This document shows, piece by piece, positions 9,667-29,736 of a stretch of 35,994 nt of DNA. Source of the stretch: Planctomycetaceae bacterium (GTDB lineage: Bacteria > Planctomycetota > Planctomycetia > Planctomycetales > Planctomycetaceae); assembly GCA_014762625.1 (NCBI GenBank), contig JABURQ010000065.1, positions 1 through 35,994 on the forward strand, in the 5' to 3' direction. The notes under the pieces are model-generated. The model did not search any database, was not told the DNA's origin, and saw only the letters and a list, made by a program, of their open reading frames with translations. How positions within the stretch are numbered: position 1 is the stretch's first letter; each line of letters opens with the position of its first letter. Position numbers and translations under genes: made by a program.

Positions 9667-9978
9667 TTACGAGCAAATGGCGAGAATGTCACTTTCCCGC
9701 AGCAGCAGGTATTCGTGGTCACCGACCTTCATCTCGTCGCCGGCGTACGAAGAGAAGATCACTTCGTCACCTGCTTTAACGGTCAGGGGGATGCGTTCCC
9801 CTTTGTTGTTGACGGGGCCTTCACCCACGGAAATGACGGTTCCACGTTGCGGTTTGTCCTGGGAACTGTCCGGAAGAACGATGCCTCCGGCAGTAGTGGC
9901 TTCCGCTTCCGCGCGTTGCAAAACGACGCGATCGCCGAGAGGGACCAGTTGAGGACCTTTGGACTTCTTCTTAGCCAT
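9667..9978 (-). CDS. groS: co-chaperonin GroES (Hsp10)
   Basis: 103 aa from the ATG at 9978, preceded by AGGAG nine bases away. A longer in-frame extension exists but has no matching ribosome site and no family similarity. The protein shows [16 protein letters not shown], the mobile-loop segment [21 protein letters not shown], and the end [12 protein letters not shown], all typical of GroES. It forms the lid of the GroEL chamber. It is the first gene of groES-groEL. The N-terminal [10 protein letters not shown] is a slightly longer basic lead than in E. coli. Confidence 0.96.
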
Positions 9979-10331
9979 TCGGATGTACTCCTGAGTCGCT
10001 GGTTCTATGAATGATGATGTGACGCCTGAGCGTCGGGATGATAGTTCTGCCAAACTGGACGTTGCCCGGCCTCCCCGCGCAACGAGTGGTATTCTCTCTC
10101 TATGCGAACTGCGTACCAAACTTTTTGAGAATCGTAAGTGCATGATTTGTAGCTACTTATGAATATCACTAATTCCGGTCAACTGCCAGGATCTCACCTC
10201 CTGCCGATGTCTCCGAGGCCTAGCTGCTGCCAATGTGGCAGAAGATCGCAAGCGACAGAAAATGTTTGCTGGCAATTTGAGACTCCGATAGGATGGGTTT
10301 TGCATTGTTTTCCCGGCATTCAGAAAGCTCC
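9979..10331. other. groES upstream region, no gene seen
   Basis: 353 bp between groES (minus) and the small membrane protein (plus), so the two promoters must be here and diverge. I looked for a CIRCE element (TTAGCACTC-N9-GAGTGCTAA) on both strands and found none. A small inverted repeat (CTGCC-AATGT-GGCAG) lies near 10225-10240. No convincing -35/-10 pair could be assigned. Confidence 0.5.
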
Positions 10332-23425: not shown

Positions 23426-24379
23426 ATGAACGACACGCCACCAAGCCAGAAACAGGTCATACCAGACAAACCTGTTAGACATCGCAACGGGTGGTTCCTG
23501 TTTGCAGTCGTCGTGTTATTCTTTGCTGTCGCGTTTAGTGTTTTGTATCCCTATTATCGGCAAATTCGCGTCATCGCACGACTGGAGGCATTGGGTGTCC
23601 ACTTTCAATTTGAACCTGTCGGTCCGGAGTGGTTACGCAACCTGTTGGGCGAAGAACGAATGCGCGCTTTCGATGATATTACATCGATCCATGCGAATGG
23701 CGCTCCCGTTACAGATGATGACTTTTCCAGACTCTCAAATCTACAGAAGCTCTGGGGATTAGATCTGGAAAGCACTCAAATCTCAGATGCTGGTTTGGTT
23801 CGGCTCAAAGAGTTCGCTAGTTTAGGTGTTCTTTATCTCGACAATACTGAAATCACTGATGAGGGACTGGCTCATCTCAATAACTCGTCCGAAATGGGTA
23901 TTCTTTCCCTCGGAAATACCAAAATCACAGACGCAGGACTGATTCACCTCAAGGATCTCAACAATTTGGTCTCTCTTGATCTCAGCAACACTATGATCAA
24001 AGAGAACGGTCTCGTTCATATAAAAAAACTGACCAACCTATCTGATCTATATCTCAATCATACACAGATTGCGGATGATGGTTTGGTTCATATCGAAAGC
24101 TTGACCGAATTGTATAGGCTTGACCTCGGGAGCACTCAAGTCACAGATACCGGTTTGGTGTCTATCAAAGAACTGAATCATTTAATTCTTTTAGATCTCA
24201 GCAACACGTCAGTTACGGACGCCGGACTCGTTCATCTGAAAACGTTCAGAAATCGGATCGAACTTTCTCTCCAAAACACCAATGTGACCGCATCGGGAGT
24301 TGAGAGGTTGCAAGAGGCACTCCCCGATTGCAAGATCGAGTTTGAGAAGTCTCCAAGCTCTCATTCCATAAGACAGTGA
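23426..24379 (+). CDS. membrane-anchored leucine-rich-repeat protein
   Basis: 317 aa. A short cytoplasmic N-terminus, one membrane helix (about residues 22-44), and a spacer are followed from about residue 95 by roughly eight 24-residue repeats of the type LxxLxLxxTxITDAGLxxLK. Examples are LVSLDLSNTMIKENGLVHI and LDLGSTQVTDTGLVSI. This is the cysteine-containing-like (Thr-Asp) LRR class common in planctomycete exported proteins, and probably binds proteins or glycans. Its DNA is more AT-rich than the neighbouring genes and repeats share codons, so the array may expand or contract. Single gene. Confidence 0.85.
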   Translation: MNDTPPSQKQVIPDKPVRHRNGWFLFAVVVLFFAVAFSVLYPYYRQIRVIARLEALGVHFQFEPVGPEWLRNLLGEERMRAFDDITSIHANGAPVTDDDFSRLSNLQKLWGLDLESTQISDAGLVRLKEFASLGVLYLDNTEITDEGLAHLNNSSEMGILSLGNTKITDAGLIHLKDLNNLVSLDLSNTMIKENGLVHIKKLTNLSDLYLNHTQIADDGLVHIESLTELYRLDLGSTQVTDTGLVSIKELNHLILLDLSNTSVTDAGLVHLKTFRNRIELSLQNTNVTASGVERLQEALPDCKIEFEKSPSSHSIRQ

Positions 24380-24521
24380 TCGAAGTCGGTGAATTCGCGA
24401 ATCCCGATGACTCAGCAGTGAAATCCTACTGAATAACCACCACTATTGTCGTGATTTTTCAATTCTGCTATCACTCACGGCGTTCAACGCCGTCATCTTC
24501 CAGAGTGAAACAGACCGTCTG

Positions 24522-25484
24522 ATGAGCATCTCTTCTCTCGATCCCAAACAAGTTGCAGTTGTTCCTCCCGAGTGTACCACCGCGGCGTTAGATTCTTCGG
24601 TTCCGATTCGCGCCCTGCGTCGCCAGACCACCGGGGCGTTCACTCTCTTTCACCTGCTGATCCCGGTGGCGTTTTTGCCGTGGTTCTTTTCGTGGGCGGG
24701 AGTGGCATCGGTCGTCTGGGGGAATTATCTGTTCGGGTCGGTCGGTATTTGTCTCTGTTATCACCGCATCCTGACTCACGGCAGTGTGAAACTTCCCAAA
24801 TGGCTCGAATACACGTTTGCGATTTTTGGTATCTGTAGCCTGCAGGATTCCCCCGCTCACTGGGTTGCCATCCACAGGCTCCATCACAAACATTCCGATC
24901 ACGACGACGATCCCCACTCTCCACGAAAGAGTCTGTTCTGGTCGCACGTGGGCTGGTTGTTAACCAAACGGACCGACCATGGTTACCACCGTAGCGAAGT
25001 GATCCAGCGCTATGCGCCCGATTTGATGTCTCAACGCTTCTATCAGTTCGTCGAAAAAGGAAACGTCTGGGTGTGGATCTTCGTCACGCATGCCGCTCTC
25101 TTCTTTCTTGCTGGTTTTCTGATGGGGTGGTCTCAAACCGGAAATCTGGTCGCTGCGACGAAGACAGGCACCGGAGCATTTTTGTGGGGAGTCGTGATGC
25201 GAGTGGTCGTCACATGGCACTTCACCTGGTCGGTGAACTCGCTCGCTCACGTTTGGGGCTATCGTAATTACGAGACACGCGACGACAGCCGAAACAACTG
25301 GCTGGTCGCTCTGGTCACCTGGGGAGAAGGTTGGCATAACAACCATCACGCCGACCAGCGAAGTGCCGCTCACGGCCACCGCTGGTGGGAGATCGACCTC
25401 ACGTACACGACGATTCGGATTTTGAAAGCGTTCGGACTGGCTCGCGACATCGTCGAACCGCGTTCGGCCAAACCCGGCTCCTGA
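24522..25484 (+). CDS. fatty acid desaturase (delta-9 / acyl-CoA type)
   Basis: 320 aa. All three His boxes of membrane di-iron desaturases are present: HRILTH at 81-86, HRLHH at 118-122 (followed by KHSDHDDDPHSP), and HNNHH at 272-276. Four or so membrane helices lie between (for example FHLLIPVAFLPWFFSW). The enzyme inserts a double bond in an acyl chain using O2 and an electron donor, tuning membrane fluidity. The motif order and spacing fit stearoyl-type delta-9 desaturases. It is convergent with the bicarbonate permease 29 bp away. Confidence 0.92.
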   Translation: MSISSLDPKQVAVVPPECTTAALDSSVPIRALRRQTTGAFTLFHLLIPVAFLPWFFSWAGVASVVWGNYLFGSVGICLCYHRILTHGSVKLPKWLEYTFAIFGICSLQDSPAHWVAIHRLHHKHSDHDDDPHSPRKSLFWSHVGWLLTKRTDHGYHRSEVIQRYAPDLMSQRFYQFVEKGNVWVWIFVTHAALFFLAGFLMGWSQTGNLVAATKTGTGAFLWGVVMRVVVTWHFTWSVNSLAHVWGYRNYETRDDSRNNWLVALVTWGEGWHNNHHADQRSAAHGHRWWEIDLTYTTIRILKAFGLARDIVEPRSAKPGS

Positions 25485-25513: not shown

Positions 25514-26494
25514 TTACGGCCAGAGAAAGTTGATCATCGACAGGTAGATCGGGATACCGACCACCACGTTAAACGGAAATGTGATCCCCAGCGACATCGG
25601 CACATAGATACCCGGATTTGCCTGCGGCAAGGCCAGTTTTGCCGCCGCCGGAACCGCGATATAACTGGCACTTCCGAACAGGACCGCCAGCAACAAGGCG
25701 TCTCCCTTGCCGACGTCGAGCACGAAACCGGTGCCGATTCCGAGTCCCGCATGCACGAGAGCCGCGAGGATCGCAAACCCGCACAGGAAGAAACTCGATT
25801 CGGGCAGCTTGCTGAGATGTTTGGCGGCGTTCACTCCCATATCCAGCAGAAACAGGGCGAGGACCCCTTTGAACGGATCGCCCAGCACCGGCTTCACACT
25901 CTCCCAGCCCTTATCGCCGGTCGCCAGACCGATCACCAGCGATCCCGCCAGCAACACGACAGGCCCGCTGCCGAGTGCTTCTTTCAACAGGCTTTTCCAG
26001 TCCATCGAAGCTTTCACCGTGGAGTCTTCGTTTGGATGGGCGTAATACCTCGCCAACAGAACACCCACTATGATCGCGGGGGATTCCATCAACGCCATCG
26101 CGGCGACCATGTACCCGCTGTATTCGATCTCCAGACTTTGCAACACACTCACGGCGGTCACGAAGGTGACCGCGCTGATCGAGCCGTAAGTGGCGGCGAT
26201 TGCGGCAGAGTTATAAACATCCAGTTTGAGACGCAGGAGAAAGAACGACCAGATCGGCACCAGCGCCGCTGCAATCACCGTCATTAACATGACTGTGCCG
26301 ACTTCACTGGTGAGTCCGCTGTGAGAGAGTTCCATGCCGCCGTGAAAGCCGATCGCCATCAACAGATACACGGACAGAAACTTCGAGATCTGATCGGGTA
26401 ATTCCAATCCGGATTTGATCCAGGTCGCAATCATCCCCAGAAAGAAAAACAGAACGGGTGGACTGAGTAAACTGTCGAAAACCGAGGTTTCCAT
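25514..26494 (-). CDS. sbtA: sodium-dependent bicarbonate permease (SbtA family)
   Basis: 326 aa, about ten membrane helices. The start SPPVLFFFLGMIATWIKSGLELPDQISKFLSVYLLMAIGFHGG and the paired half MALMESPAIIVGVLLARYY are characteristic of SbtA/DUF897. The second half repeats with GSASYIAVPAAAKLALPQANP. In cyanobacteria SbtA is a high-affinity Na+/HCO3- symporter controlled by the PII-like SbtB; I see no sbtB here. AAGGA lies five bases before the ATG. It is last of a minus-strand series with icd (68 bp gap) and the anhydrase-like gene, which supports a role in inorganic carbon handling. Confidence 0.87.
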   Translation of the reverse strand: METSVFDSLLSPPVLFFFLGMIATWIKSGLELPDQISKFLSVYLLMAIGFHGGMELSHSGLTSEVGTVMLMTVIAAALVPIWSFFLLRLKLDVYNSAAIAATYGSISAVTFVTAVSVLQSLEIEYSGYMVAAMALMESPAIIVGVLLARYYAHPNEDSTVKASMDWKSLLKEALGSGPVVLLAGSLVIGLATGDKGWESVKPVLGDPFKGVLALFLLDMGVNAAKHLSKLPESSFFLCGFAILAALVHAGLGIGTGFVLDVGKGDALLLAVLFGSASYIAVPAAAKLALPQANPGIYVPMSLGITFPFNVVVGIPIYLSMINFLWP

Positions 26495-26562
26495 GAGGTT
26501 CCTTTACAAACGAGAGTGAGTGGGTTGCACTCGTGAAAAATAAACGTCTTGTAAGCGACCGC

Positions 26563-28059
26563 TCACTCGCCCTGTCCGAGCGAGTAAGCCGGTTTGCCGT
26601 CAAATAGACAGAGGTGCTCCGTCTTGATGAAGTCGATCCCCGCGGCGGAGAGCCGGGTCAGTAAGTCGATAATCTGCTGATGGCTGACCGGTTGGTCGTT
26701 GGAGGATTTGAATCGGCACCGCCAGTGGTCGGTACAGAAGGTTTCCGGGAACCCGTTCGGCCAGACTTTCACGCCGCGATTGGTGATCATCTTGATACAG
26801 AGGTCGGCGTTGCTGACCGCTTCCAGCGCCGCTCCCAGATCGTCCGGGGTGACGTCGTGCCAGTGGATGAAGACATCCACGCCCACCATCGACTTCGTTG
26901 CGGGAACGGTCGGTTTGATCGAGACATTCAGTTCCGCCGGTCCGTCGGTGTTGAACTTTGCGGGCTTCAACTGTTGCGGTGTTTGTCCCAGCCGCTCGAT
27001 GACAGCCGCCGCAAAATCCTGGGTGCCGACTTGTTGCGCGGTCAATTTTTCCGAAGAGATATCCTCGGTATGAACGCCGTCTTCGATGGTTCTCAGCCAG
27101 GCGTTCTGGATCTTCTCCGCAATCTCGGCTTGCCCGATATGAACCAGCATCATCACCGCCGCGTTCAGCAAGCCGGAGGGATTGGCAATATTCTTACCGG
27201 CGATCGGAGGGGCCGATCCGTGAATCGCCTCGAACATAGCGATCCCCTCTCCGATATTCGCCGAGCCTCCCATGCCGACCGAACCGGTCAACTGAATCGC
27301 GATGTCGGAGAGGATGTCGCCGTACAGATTCGGCGTCACGATCACGTCGAACTCTTCCGGGGCGGTGGAGAGCTTGGCGGCACCGATGTCGATGATCCAG
27401 TGTTCGCTTTCGATCTCGGGATACTCGGAGGCCACTTCCTCGAAGACTTTATGAAACAGACCGTCAGTCAGTTTCATGATGTTGTCTTTGGTGAAGCAGC
27501 TGACTTTCTTGCGATTGTTGGCGACTGCGTACTCGAACGCGTAGCGGCAGATTCGTTCGCTACCCGGTCGCGTAATCAATTTGAGACACTGGGCGACTTC
27601 GTCCGTCTGCTGGTGTTCGATACCGCCGTAGGTGTCTTCTTCGTTCTCCCGAACGATGACGACATCCATCTCGGGATGCAGGTTCTCCACAAACGGGTCG
27701 TGGGCCACACAGGGGCGAACGTTGGCGAACAGCCCCAGTGTTTTGCGGACGGTCACGTTGAGACTTTTATAGCCTCCTCCCTGCGGCGTGGTGATCGGAG
27801 CTTTGAGGAAGACCTTATTTTTCCGGAGCGAATCCCAGGCCTCGGGAGCGATCCCCGATGTGTGTCCCTGTTCGTAAACCTGAGCACCGATTTCAATTTC
27901 GTGAATGTCGAGAGCGGCTCCGGCGGCGTTCAGGATTTGCAGAGTTGCGTCCATGATTTCCGGACCGATGCCGTCACCACGGGCGACGGTGATCGGCGTC
28001 GCAGCAGGATTGGGAATCTTGTCCGACTGATTTTCGATAAATGGAGTCGTGGTTGACAT
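26563..28059 (-). CDS. icd: NADP-type isocitrate dehydrogenase (long, Thermus-like form)
   Basis: 498 aa. Converts isocitrate to 2-oxoglutarate and CO2 in the TCA cycle. Motifs: VARGDGIGPEIMDAT near residue 26, NVTVRKTLGLFANVRP, IVRENEEDTYGG and NLYGDILSDIAIQLTGSVGMGGSANIG. After the core (about residue 340) there is an extra C-terminal domain (KPTVPATKSMVGVDVFIHW to the end), as in the ~496-aa enzymes of Thermus and Rickettsia types. AAGGGAA lies just upstream of the ATG. It sits between the carbonic-anhydrase-like gene and the bicarbonate permease, an unusual place for icd. Cofactor preference is inferred, not seen. Confidence 0.93.
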   Translation of the reverse strand: MSTTTPFIENQSDKIPNPAATPITVARGDGIGPEIMDATLQILNAAGAALDIHEIEIGAQVYEQGHTSGIAPEAWDSLRKNKVFLKAPITTPQGGGYKSLNVTVRKTLGLFANVRPCVAHDPFVENLHPEMDVVIVRENEEDTYGGIEHQQTDEVAQCLKLITRPGSERICRYAFEYAVANNRKKVSCFTKDNIMKLTDGLFHKVFEEVASEYPEIESEHWIIDIGAAKLSTAPEEFDVIVTPNLYGDILSDIAIQLTGSVGMGGSANIGEGIAMFEAIHGSAPPIAGKNIANPSGLLNAAVMMLVHIGQAEIAEKIQNAWLRTIEDGVHTEDISSEKLTAQQVGTQDFAAAVIERLGQTPQQLKPAKFNTDGPAELNVSIKPTVPATKSMVGVDVFIHWHDVTPDDLGAALEAVSNADLCIKMITNRGVKVWPNGFPETFCTDHWRCRFKSSNDQPVSHQQIIDLLTRLSAAGIDFIKTEHLCLFDGKPAYSLGQGE

Positions 28060-28116
28060 CTTTGTCGTTCCCTTTTGTTTTGAGTGTCGATGAACGCTTG
28101 AGAGGACGGCGAGGTT

Positions 28117-28722
28117 TCAGAGGCGATCGTCGCTGGGAATTAACGGTGAGAACTCTCCGGAGTTGGGGTCGAAGGACATGAAGGTTCCCGCTTGGGCCAG
28201 GAAAAAGAGCGCGTGAATCTTCAAATTCCCTCGTTGGATTGCACGTTGCACAACGGGGAGTTCAAGTATCTGATGAACCTGGTCCGCAAAATGATTTTTG
28301 GCATTTTGAAGACGCTTCTGATTGCCCATCAGCCGCCCCAGCATCCAGAGGCGGTCGGCGATCTCGTCCTTGTTTTTTTCGAGGTCCGAGTACTCTGAAA
28401 ACCGATCATCAGACAGCAAAGGATTTTTCGAAAACCCAAACGTATGCCCGCAGATGTATAAACTACGAATTCCACCCTCTCGTAAGGCCCAACCGATTGC
28501 CGCTGCGAGTTCGGACTCATCGAAATGCCACTCGGCCTGGGATTCATGAATCGCCAGAGTGCGATGGTATTTCGAAATCGGGGCGAGTCGCTTGGCTAAA
28601 ACGTCGTCCTGATGAGCCAAAATCAGGCAGTCGGCGGAGTCGAGTTCGCGAGCGATGAGTGATTCCCGCAATTTCTGAATGTAAGCGTTTTTGGATGCCT
28701 GTTCTTTCACATTTGAAATCAT
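28117..28722 (-). CDS. beta-carbonic-anhydrase-like protein lacking canonical zinc ligands
   Basis: 201 aa from the ATG at 28722, with GGGAG six bases upstream; a longer frame would run through a terminator hairpin. The beta-carbonic-anhydrase plan is visible: ADCLILAHQDDVLAKR where CxDSR should be, GIRSLYICGHTFGFSK where GHTxCG should be, a long helix AKNHFADQVHQIL, and the C-terminal strand LKIHALFFLAQAGTFMSFD matching 'lhGw.yd..tG'. His93 is kept, but the first Cys is replaced in AHQDD and the second is Gly96. Normal zinc binding therefore looks lost. It may bind bicarbonate or act as a regulator. First of a likely operon with icd (57 bp gap). Confidence 0.7.
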   Translation of the reverse strand: MISNVKEQASKNAYIQKLRESLIARELDSADCLILAHQDDVLAKRLAPISKYHRTLAIHESQAEWHFDESELAAAIGWALREGGIRSLYICGHTFGFSKNPLLSDDRFSEYSDLEKNKDEIADRLWMLGRLMGNQKRLQNAKNHFADQVHQILELPVVQRAIQRGNLKIHALFFLAQAGTFMSFDPNSGEFSPLIPSDDRL

Positions 28723-28752
28723 GTCGGTCTCCCGTCGGTTGAAAAAGTCCAT

Positions 28753-28797
28753 AAAAAAAGCCGATGGAGGACATGAGGTGACATGTCCTTCATCGGC
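28753..28797 (-). terminator. very strong hairpin plus U-run directly before the anhydrase-like gene (terminator or attenuator)
   Basis: Stem GCCGATG-G-AGGACATG / CATGTCCT-T-CATCGGC (16 pairs with one G-U) around a 6-nt loop at 28760-28797, followed on the minus strand by seven T (28759-28753). Only 30 nt separate the U-run from the next start codon, too little for a separate promoter and leader. The downstream genes are therefore probably reached by read-through or by regulated antitermination. Confidence 0.82.
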
Positions 28798-28853
28798 CTG
28801 TCCGGTCCGGCGTGACATCCGGTCCGACATCGGTCGTTGGAAATGAATTGTCT

Positions 28854-28882
28854 GTGAGTCTCGTTGGATTCGCGTGACTCAC
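28854..28882 (-). other. inverted repeat in the leader between the mini-protein and the terminator
   Basis: GTGAGTC and GACTCAC separated by about 15 nt. It lies between the 39-aa gene stop and the strong hairpin, so it could be part of an alternative leader fold. No function shown. Confidence 0.4.
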
Positions 28883-28932
28883 ACCGTCAAGCAGTCTCTG
28901 GCCAGGTAAACGCGAATCTTCAATTATTTTGT

Positions 28933-29052
28933 CTATGCCAGATAAATGTCGGTCGGGTCGCCGCCGTAATCGATCGGCTCGCTGACCGGGTTTTCATCCA
29001 GCCGCTCTTTGAATTTGTTCCAGAGGTTCAATAACCCGTTGAGGATCGGCAT
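28933..29052 (-). CDS. 39-aa mini-protein
   Basis: ATG at 29052 with GGGAG ten bases upstream. The peptide begins MPILNGLLNLWNKFKERL and ends with the acidic DYGGDPTDIYLA. The first half can form an amphipathic helix (Leu, Trp, Phe on one face; Lys, Arg on another). It is flanked by strong terminators on both sides, so it forms its own unit or is a leader peptide of the operon behind it. A longer frame from 29178 crosses the upstream terminator and is unlikely. No family recognised. Confidence 0.5.
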   Translation of the reverse strand: MPILNGLLNLWNKFKERLDENPVSEPIDYGGDPTDIYLA

Positions 29053-29364
29053 GGGCTCTGTTCTCCCTCTGCGCGTAAATTTCTCGCAGTTCAATTCAAA
29101 GATTTCGATTGGTTCCGAGCAAAAAAAAAGACCGGGAGACTGCGGGTGCAATCTTCCGGCCTTTTCACGCGAACGCATCGTTCCGCGTAACGAAAGCTCG
29201 TTTCTTCTTTCAGCGAACTAACCGGACTGCCGGTTTGCGACTTTCAGATCAGTTCTCTGAATCCATCGGCAAAACTATAGGAATGGTTTTAACAATTTCC
29301 AAGTCTAAACCGATAGAAAATCTCGATAGACGGTATTGCTCTGATCGAATGATGGGTGGGACTC
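29053..29364. other. 312-bp gap between mini-protein and DUF2294 gene
   Basis: Contains the terminator of the DUF2294 gene (29121-29161) and, on its mini-protein side, room for a minus-strand promoter between 29120 and 29065. No other protein frame looks real. Confidence 0.5.
29121..29161 (-). terminator. terminator downstream of the DUF2294 gene
   Basis: Imperfect stem CCGGGAGA / TCTTCCGG (with one G-U) around a GC-rich loop that can pair further (TGC/GCA), followed on the minus strand by nine T (29129-29121). It lies about 200 bp after the DUF2294 stop. Confidence 0.7.
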
Positions 29365-29736
29365 TCATGACGACGCCGCGAAACGGGGTTCTTCCTGCAG
29401 TGTGAAGACGATGATTCGCTCGCCGGTTTTCGAACTGATATCGGTATGCAGGCTGACCACTTCGATGCCGGTGATGTCCTTGATCACTTTATCCAGTAGA
29501 GGCCGCGCTTTTTCGATCAGTTCCTGACGCACTTCCTTAATGAGATGCCGACCGCGGTCACTGGTTTCGGTTTCGGAGAGTTTCAGTTCCGCCGGCGTGA
29601 GGACGTTCTTCAATCGGACCAGCACCATGTCTTCGATGATGAAGACCTTGGCCTGTAAAGGACCGCGTCCCATGTACTCTTTTTCAAAGCGAATAATCGC
29701 CTGACTGATTTCCCGCTCGGTATCACTTTTAATCAT
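29365..29736 (-). CDS. DUF2294 / MpsC-like protein
   Basis: 123 aa. The pattern REISQAIIRFEKEYMGRGPLQAKVFIIEDMVLVRLKNVLTPAELKLSE, then ISSKTGERIIVFTL, is typical of DUF2294 (PF10057). This family is named after MpsC of the Staphylococcus Mps system, whose MpsAB pair takes up bicarbonate. The role of MpsC itself is not known. Here no mpsA or mpsB (NdhF-like, DUF2309) is visible, but an SbtA permease and an anhydrase-like gene follow on the same strand. Soluble, probably cytoplasmic. Confidence 0.82.
   Translation of the reverse strand: MIKSDTEREISQAIIRFEKEYMGRGPLQAKVFIIEDMVLVRLKNVLTPAELKLSETETSDRGRHLIKEVRQELIEKARPLLDKVIKDITGIEVVSLHTDISSKTGERIIVFTLQEEPRFAASS

What the first reader, a model, noticed from the sequence alone, without database searches (positions are those of the whole stretch)
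25514..29736. Candidate inorganic-carbon module: MpsC-like, mini-protein, anhydrase-like, Icd and SbtA
Seen: five same-strand genes whose families can each be tied to bicarbonate or CO2. Known: SbtA is a Na+/HCO3- symporter; DUF2294 is named for MpsC of the bicarbonate-linked Mps system; beta-carbonic anhydrases interconvert CO2 and HCO3-; isocitrate dehydrogenase releases CO2. Inferred: the group balances or senses dissolved inorganic carbon in a heterotroph, perhaps for anaplerosis, with the degenerate anhydrase replacing the usual SbtB regulator. I know of no description of this combination.
Basis: partly seen in the sequence, partly recalled or inferred. Interest (0 to 1): 0.8.

Follow-up and report, generated by a model that had tools for sequence, protein, structure and literature searches.

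The report
RNA-led inorganic-carbon uptake gene module
A planctomycete gene group that looks built for taking up dissolved carbon dioxide or bicarbonate pairs a transporter with a worn-out carbonic anhydrase and sits behind an undescribed RNA switch-like element, which relatives place near quite different carbon transporters.

Summary
The five genes are real and the neighbourhood is conserved: MpsC - anhydrase-like - (Icd) - SbtA recurs in the sister species, in another genus of the family (no Icd) and in a Pirellulaceae MAG. The anhydrase-like protein has the beta-anhydrase fold, but 7 of 7 homologues lack at least one zinc ligand. A PII/SbtB gene lies in 71 of 80 related SbtA loci; the five anhydrase-linked SbtAs lack it and form one clade, so partner replacement is supported. 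A model built from five MpsC-side copies found ten further good copies in 170 family genomes: nine lie near inorganic-carbon transporters of three unrelated kinds (DabBA 4, SulP 4, bestrophin 1), eight beside MpsC. Weaker matches examined: 0 of 8. Fetched RNA-less MpsC loci: 0 of 8. The "mini-protein" belongs to a small family whose C-terminal tail (DPxDIYLA) also ends a SulP-linked anhydrase. Best reading: a transcription-attenuated inorganic-carbon uptake module with a non-catalytic anhydrase as transporter partner. The signal, MpsC's role and transport itself are untested.

The parts
29365..29736 (-). MpsC / DUF2294 gene (123 aa); the only PF10057 match found in this genome
   Evidence: Pfam; own-genome row
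29274..29302 (-). promoter-like site TTGGAA-17-TATAGT that would start leader RNA 1
   Evidence: in 9 of 9 aligned copies the best (once tied) site has a 17-base spacer 60-82 bases before the element, but my score favoured 17 by half a point and single scores are near the shuffled maximum
29120..29200 (-). leader RNA 1: hairpin P1 plus intrinsic-terminator hairpin and T run
   Evidence: covariation; 91.9 bits with model R1, of which it is a build sequence; no Rfam match at gathering score (only chance-level ones)
28933..29052 (-). 39-aa small protein ending GGDPTDIYLA
   Evidence: coding pattern; similar frames in G001, L088 and G030, tail also on the G093 anhydrase
28750..28836 (-). leader RNA 2: same two-hairpin layout, ending about 28 bases before the anhydrase-like start codon
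   Evidence: searches (z -4.3; 33.5 bits, weak), fold; G001 has it at the same place (34.6 bits)
28117..28722 (-). beta-carbonic-anhydrase-like protein (201 aa), zinc site lost (C->H, C->G)
   Evidence: PF00484 2.5e-6; AF2 model pLDDT 74.6; the 50 PDB rows shown are beta-CAs, best Z 12.1; residue table
26563..28059 (-). isocitrate dehydrogenase with the C-terminal domain of bacterial type (TIGR02924/NF006673)
25514..26494 (-). SbtA-family Na+/bicarbonate symporter, short subfamily, no SbtB beside it
   Evidence: PF05982 1.5e-114; no PII hit in L027; tree

Best explanation
This is an inorganic-carbon (Ci) uptake module of planctomycetes under RNA-based control. A promoter after mpsC starts a short leader. 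The leader folds into a conserved hairpin (P1) followed at once by an intrinsic terminator, so the downstream genes are expressed only when polymerase reads through; a second, weaker copy of the element repeats this just before the anhydrase-like gene. The read-through product is a small protein, then an anhydrase-like protein, Icd and SbtA. SbtA would bring in bicarbonate with Na+. The anhydrase-like protein keeps the fold but not the zinc site, and has taken the place of the PII protein SbtB as the transporter's soluble partner, probably reading or gating bicarbonate. Icd would use or balance the CO2. Shown: genes, homology, conservation, partner swap by gene content, covarying RNA, its position near unrelated Ci transporters. 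Inferred: attenuation as mechanism, Ci as signal, the regulatory role of the anhydrase-like protein, transport itself.
For: RNA: P1 has 96.3% of cells paired, 7 of 9 pairs with two-sided changes, covariation score reached by 0 of 500 shuffles, and it collapses when slid. Model R1, built from five MpsC-side copies, none beside DabBA or SulP, found ten other sense-strand copies of at least 39.8 bits in 170 family genomes (cut-off set after seeing the list, next score 38.9). Nine of ten lie, same strand, within about 2 kb of DabB-DabA (4), SulP (4) or a bestrophin (1), and eight of ten beside MpsC. Eight lower-scoring places examined: 0 of 8, one of them at a contig end. Eight fetched RNA-less MpsC loci: 0 of 8. 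Leader 2 ends about 28 bases before the anhydrase-like start, which leaves no room for a promoter; the element ends 43 bases before DabB in G000:C40 and 15 before the Usp gene in G133 and G141. Partner swap: PII gene in 71 of 80 loci and in 22 of 23 other loci of the phylum sample; the five anhydrase-linked SbtAs are one clade, SH-aLRT 100, without a PII hit. In 25 of the 80 loci a beta-anhydrase gene is near, and 27 of 27 such proteins keep CxDxR and HxxC, whereas 7 of 7 anhydrase-like homologues lack a zinc ligand. Homologues of the latter also follow DabA in G106 and G183. This SbtA type and this Icd type occur in the same 5 of 37 family genomes.
Against: No expression or transport data. 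Only five anhydrase-linked SbtA loci were found, two of them in one genus. The leader is not on every Ci operon: 11 other DabA loci (one cut at its start) and six SbtA loci (four with PII, one without, and L087 with the anhydrase-like gene) gave no match at E 0.1. G018, which has the module, scores only 26.1 bits, no better than a doubtful match in an RNA-less locus (L070, 25.3 bits). Two build copies (G002, G030) precede no Ci transporter, and one good match (G025) has neither MpsC nor a transporter. No antiterminator pairing was found (z between -2.1 and 0.8), so how termination is relieved is unknown. Leader 2 scores weakly (33.5 bits) and its family alignment was poor. Six of the 80 SbtA loci have neither PII nor an anhydrase-like gene, so PII loss alone is not unique. 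Two of four HCO3- contacts of Slr1512 are replaced in this SbtA, and a Labrenzia SbtA-like protein was inactive in E. coli (PMC4275256, passages).
Confidence: 0.6

Rival explanations
1. The hairpin pair is not cis-acting: it is a small RNA with its own promoter and terminator that happens to be encoded between MpsC and Ci operons, acting in trans or as a plain MpsC terminator.
For: Promoter-like site and terminator bracket a transcript of roughly 150 bases; no antiterminator pairing; in G002 and G030 no Ci gene follows.
Against: Start codons 15-43 bases after the element in several loci leave little or no room for another promoter; tandem copies sit directly before the operon.
Confidence: 0.25
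2. The anhydrase-like protein is a working enzyme with a rebuilt metal site (His-x-Asp ... Gly-His), still interconverting CO2 and HCO3- beside the transporter.
For: 5 of 7 homologues replace the first Cys by His and all 7 keep the Asp; beta-CA fold predicted; anhydrases with an intact motif accompany other SbtA genes (25 of 80 loci, 27 of 27 proteins), and a Cys/His/Cys anhydrase follows DabA in G017.
Against: The three metal ligands are changed differently among lineages (H/H/G, H/H/A, C/Q/F, F/H/C, H/T/A, H/H/S) and the catalytic Arg is missing in 6 of 7, which looks like relaxed catalysis, not a new fixed site.
Confidence: 0.2
3. Ordinary neighbours: a transferred SbtA-like transporter of uncertain substrate beside housekeeping genes, with a decayed anhydrase as a relic.
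For: The sister species G002 lacks the CA-like-Icd-SbtA cassette at the same site, so the cassette comes or goes; flanking genes differ between G000/G001, G018, L087 and L088.
Against: The same order recurs in a Pirellulaceae MAG; the degenerate protein stays an open reading frame in the 7 homologues seen and also occurs after DabA; the RNA and MpsC tie three further transporter families to the set.
Confidence: 0.15

Closest known systems
SbtA-SbtB (SbtA-PII) bicarbonate uptake system of cyanobacteria
   Same: SbtA family transporter with a small soluble partner encoded beside it; most other SbtA genes examined in the phylum, and this genome's second SbtA (L002), keep the PII/SbtB gene
   Different: no PII gene found; a zinc-less beta-anhydrase homologue upstream of SbtA instead; Icd in the unit; leader RNA and MpsC in front
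SbtA-SbtB-beta-anhydrase and SulP-anhydrase gene sets
   Same: beta-CA family gene near a Ci transporter (25 of 80 SbtA loci; SulP-CA fusion in G055)
   Different: those anhydrases keep the zinc motif where checked (27 of 27; G034 and G132); here it is lost
MpsABC / DabAB (S. aureus mps operon)
   Same: MpsC family gene beside Ci transport genes; in G106, G115 and G183 MpsC precedes the leader RNA and DabB-DabA
   Different: in the window the transporter is SbtA; MpsC is separated by the leader RNA; S. aureus mpsC had no phenotype (PMC6689103, passages)
Riboswitches and protein-controlled transcription attenuators (recalled)
   Same: structured leader with terminator directly before the controlled gene, same leader before different transporters
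   Different: no Rfam family matches at gathering score; no antiterminator seen; ligand or protein unknown

Membership tests
SbtA (Na+-dependent bicarbonate transporter, PF05982) | full-length family match above cut-off | tested here: met
   382.9 bits against cut-off 27, residues 12-321
SbtA (Na+-dependent bicarbonate transporter, PF05982) | docked HCO3- contacts of Slr1512 (S114, Y140, S324, S327; PMC8352866) | tested here: inconclusive
   S114->S107 and S324->S277 kept; Y140->M133 and S327->A280 changed (alignment, numbering counted by hand)
SbtA (Na+-dependent bicarbonate transporter, PF05982) | Na+-dependent bicarbonate uptake | not testable with these tools
   needs an uptake assay
SbtA-SbtB two-component uptake system | PII/SbtB gene beside SbtA | tested here: not met
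   no hit beside SbtA in the window and G001 (L027, L028) or in L086, L087, L088; 71 of 80 related loci have one
beta-carbonic anhydrase (enzyme) | beta-CA fold | tested here: met
   PF00484 2.5e-6; Foldseek best 2.8e-7 to CcaA, VIA Z 12.1, rmsd 3.7 over 144 residues; model pLDDT only 74.6
beta-carbonic anhydrase (enzyme) | Cys-His-Cys zinc ligands with Asp-Arg dyad | tested here: not met
   window His/His/Gly, Asp kept, Arg->Val; 7 of 7 homologues lack at least one ligand. Of 22 comparison anhydrases, 21 keep all three ligands (L005 and L025 among them lack the Arg) and G093 lacks the last Cys; 27 of 27 SbtA-side anhydrases keep the motif
MpsABC bicarbonate/membrane-potential system | MpsA and MpsB (DabB, DabA) beside MpsC | tested here: not met
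   absent beside MpsC in the window; DabB-DabA lie on another contig of this genome behind the same leader RNA; met in G106, G115, G183
MpsABC bicarbonate/membrane-potential system | PF10057 match | tested here: met
   126.5 bits, cut-off 23
known Rfam regulatory RNA family | match at a curated gathering score | tested here: not met
   0 matches in the window, L026, L057, L065 and nine further loci; sub-threshold matches on leader 1 at E about 3, best overall E 0.37 on the other strand over leader 2
cis-acting transcription attenuator | conserved structured leader ending in an intrinsic terminator just before the coding region | tested here: met
cis-acting transcription attenuator | signal-dependent read-through | not testable with these tools
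   needs reporter or term-seq data
cis-acting transcription attenuator | alternative antiterminator pairing | tested here: inconclusive
   leader 5' part against terminator arm: z -2.1 to 0.8 in nine copies

The most novel reading that the evidence does not exclude
MpsC (DUF2294), for which I know of no assigned molecular function, is the trans-acting sensor of a dedicated RNA regulon: it (or Ci itself) reads hairpin P1 and decides termination in front of unrelated Ci transporter types (SbtA, DabBA, SulP, perhaps bestrophin). The zinc-less anhydrase replaces SbtB as transporter partner, and the DPxDIYLA-tailed small protein is a second output. In this genome a single MpsC would serve both the SbtA cassette and the distant dabBA operon.
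Probability: 0.25. Interest if true: 0.92.

Novelty: new variant of a known kind. Interest (0 to 1): 0.78.

Why it matters
How non-photosynthetic bacteria sense and control inorganic-carbon supply is poorly known. Here one covarying leader RNA marks Ci transporters of unrelated families, gives a handle on the unexplained MpsC family, and shows a PII regulator apparently replaced by a dead carbonic anhydrase. Each step can be tested with short constructs in laboratory E. coli.

Tried and rejected
Rfam: nothing at gathering score, only chance-level matches below it. MpsC fold: AF2 model pLDDT 84.4, but no Foldseek match at 0.001 and best VIA Z 7.1, so no fold family claimed. Antiterminator pairing: not supported. 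MpsC as part of a classical MpsAB set: G001 and G002 have MpsC but no DabA match. The idea that all DabA or SbtA operons carry the leader: rejected. A MAFFT alignment of the second-type leaders was poor and its consensus fold is not used. Ordinary ICD of the PRK08299 type: not found above cut-off in this genome, so the window Icd may be its main one; monomeric ICD was not searched for.

Literature: judging from listings, none of these searches showed a paper that joins the parts: SbtA + SbtB, DUF2294, SbtA + carbonic anhydrase + Planctomycet, MpsC + bicarbonate, carbonic anhydrase + pseudoenzyme + bicarbonate transporter, CPII, riboswitch + bicarbonate transport + carbonic anhydrase, Planctomycet + riboswitch + RNA motif + sulfate permease, Planctomycet + DabA + inorganic carbon, attenuation + inorganic carbon + terminator + bicarbonate. 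Only listings and abstract starts were seen, except PMC8352866 (main text read whole), PMC4275256 (passages) and PMC6689103 (passages).

Full report
WHAT IS THERE. On the minus strand lie, in order of transcription, mpsC (29736-29365), a 39-codon frame (29052-28933), an anhydrase-like gene (28722-28117), icd (28059-26563) and sbtA (26494-25514). Family matches: PF10057, PF00484, TIGR02924/NF006673 and PF05982. Two hairpin-plus-T-run elements cut the region: leader 1 between mpsC and the small gene, leader 2 ending about 28 bases before the anhydrase-like start codon. CA-like-icd-sbtA have gaps of 57 and 68 bases and only a 5-pair terminator candidate between icd and sbtA, so they are probably one unit. 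mpsC is another.

CONSERVATION. In 59 genomes, own included, G001 of the same genus keeps mpsC, CA-like, icd and sbtA in this order; its mpsC match contains one TAA. G018, another genus, keeps mpsC, CA-like and sbtA, with icd elsewhere. G002, same genus, has mpsC at the same site but lacks the CA-like-icd-sbtA cassette. Of 170 family genomes searched, six have a close SbtA (E 1e-85); three of these (G000, G001, G018) have the anhydrase-like gene and G014, G023, G109 do not (neighbours). Even samples of 392 phylum and 397 class genomes, own included, gave no further member. The module is real but rare.

PARTNER SWAP. A PII/SbtB-type gene lies in 71 of the 80 SbtA loci and in 22 of 23 other loci of the phylum sample. 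The nearest solved relatives of one such PII protein are 5d4n and SbtB entries (I recall 5d4n as CPII). The five SbtAs with the anhydrase-like gene have no PII hit and form one clade (SH-aLRT 100, quick tree of 59 rows) nested among PII-linked ones. The genome's second SbtA (L002) keeps an SbtB-like gene. Nine of 80 loci lack PII: three are the anhydrase-linked ones, six have neither. In 25 of 80 loci an anhydrase gene lies in the stretch held, and 27 of 27 such proteins keep the CxDxR and HxxC motifs, so the degenerate site is peculiar to this clade.

THE ANHYDRASE-LIKE PROTEIN. The AF2 model (four sequences, pLDDT 74.6, pTM 0.70) matches beta-anhydrases in all 50 rows shown (VIA best Z 12.1, rmsd 3.7 over 144 residues). 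In the alignment the three metal ligands (Cys, His, Cys) read: window H/H/G, G001 H/H/A, G018 C/Q/F, L087 F/H/C, L088 H/H/G, G106 H/T/A, G183 H/H/S. All seven keep the Asp; six of seven lack the Arg. G093's SulP-linked anhydrase has lost the last Cys. The other 21 comparison anhydrases keep Cys/His/Cys. G106 and G183 are homologues lying directly after DabA; with L088 and G001 they group with the window protein (95; G018 joins at 82, L087 falls outside without support; long branches warned of). So the protein goes with more than one transporter type.

THE LEADER RNA. Five copies found beside mpsC (G000, G001, G002, L088, G030) gave 9 of 24 pairs with two-sided changes. Nine copies gave 16 of 24. 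Hairpin P1 alone: 96.3% paired cells against 80.6% shuffled, covariation 0.769 against 0.407, 0 of 500 shuffles as high, and slid controls at most 0.185. Model R1 was run on 170 family genomes (strict filters; 52 with a match at E 0.01, 79 places). Sense-strand places of 39.8 bits or more: 14, the line being drawn after seeing the list. Four were build sequences. The ten others: G106, G115, G183 (mpsC-RNA-dabB-dabA), G000 contig 40 (RNA-dabB-dabA), G141, G133, G132 (mpsC-RNA-Usp-SulP), G093 (mpsC-RNA-RNA-anhydrase-SulP), G114 (RNA-175 aa frame-mpsC-Usp-bestrophin, about 2 kb away) and G025 (nothing of the kind). Of the weaker places I examined eight: 0 of 8 had MpsC or such a transporter, one being at a contig end. 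Forty-six other weak places, by my count without antisense duplicates, were not examined. Two build copies, G002 and G030, precede no Ci transporter. Eight fetched loci with MpsC and no good element: 0 of 8 near one; ten further MpsC matches were not fetched. Eleven other DabA loci, and SbtA loci L058, L059, L061, L251, L254 and L087, gave no R1 match at E 0.1. Weak elements: G055 (32.9 bits; a SulP-anhydrase fusion follows), G018 (26.1) and G051 (20.9), the last two no better than a match in the RNA-less locus L070 (25.3). In nine of nine aligned copies the best promoter-like site (tied in G001) has a 17-base spacer and lies 60-82 bases upstream, with a score that favoured that spacer by half a point. 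Second copies precede the operon in the window, G001, G183 and G093, and weakly in G106 (23.5 bits); one is visible by eye in G115. RNA-linked MpsCs cluster in the MpsC tree (3 changes against 10.1 shuffled; G051 and G055, which I had labelled RNA-less there, fall among the RNA-linked).

THE SMALL PROTEIN. Frames directly after leader 1 end in GGDPTDIYLA (G000, G001), DGDPSEIYLA (L088) and CGSLADIHLA (G030). The G093 anhydrase ends in YDPCDIYLA. No such frame was seen after leader 1 in G002, G106, G115, G183 or after the G018 element. A stop-anchored motif search over all loci held (141,229 stops, overlapping loci counted more than once) found these five and no other; the pattern was widened after seeing members. 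The tail may be a docking or turnover signal (inference).

ICD AND SBTA. In the 37 family genomes of the relatives set, this SbtA type (E below 1e-90) and this Icd type (E below 1e-200) occur in the same five: G000, G001, G014, G018, G023. Two share a genus, so these are four genera. Outside the family the Icd type also occurs without this SbtA (for example G054, G042). Icd lies directly before SbtA also in a Sulfurovum MAG, there with PII (L114). A functional tie is likely; its direction is unknown.

JUDGEMENT. What decides termination, what the dead anhydrase does and whether this SbtA moves bicarbonate remain open. I prefer an attenuated Ci-uptake module (0.6). MpsC as the trans-acting factor is the boldest reading not excluded (0.25): each of the 13 family genomes with a good RNA copy, except G025, has MpsC beside a copy of the RNA, and G000 has a single MpsC match for two RNA-led transporter loci.

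Noticed in passing
L002 (G000 contig 177): Second SbtA of this genome, long type, with an SbtB-like gene after it and a divergent response-regulator gene in front.
   Followed up: partly
L057 1774-2739: In G018 a LysR-type regulator (type and NhaR-likeness recalled, no family search run) follows SbtA on the same strand.
   Followed up: no
L026 about 9822-10190: The mpsC match of G001 holds one TAA near its start (pseudogene or sequence error).
   Followed up: no
L069, L070, L071, L072, L075, L076: Divergent pairs of two different DUF2294 paralogues, without a good leader RNA match and without Ci transporters in the stretches held.
   Followed up: partly
L067 8059-9705: In G051 mpsC and a weak leader are followed by an Icd-like frame that covers only the C-terminal half.
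   Followed up: no
window 23426-25484: An LRR protein and a fatty-acid desaturase lie between sbtA and the DUF1501 gene in the window; the G001 locus has no gene there.
   Followed up: no
L250 (G017): dabB-dabA followed by an anhydrase that keeps Cys/His/Cys but not the Arg; it may show a step between enzyme and pseudoenzyme.
   Followed up: partly
L232 (G114): The leader RNA precedes a 175-aa frame, mpsC, a Usp-like protein and a bestrophin-family channel.
   Followed up: partly
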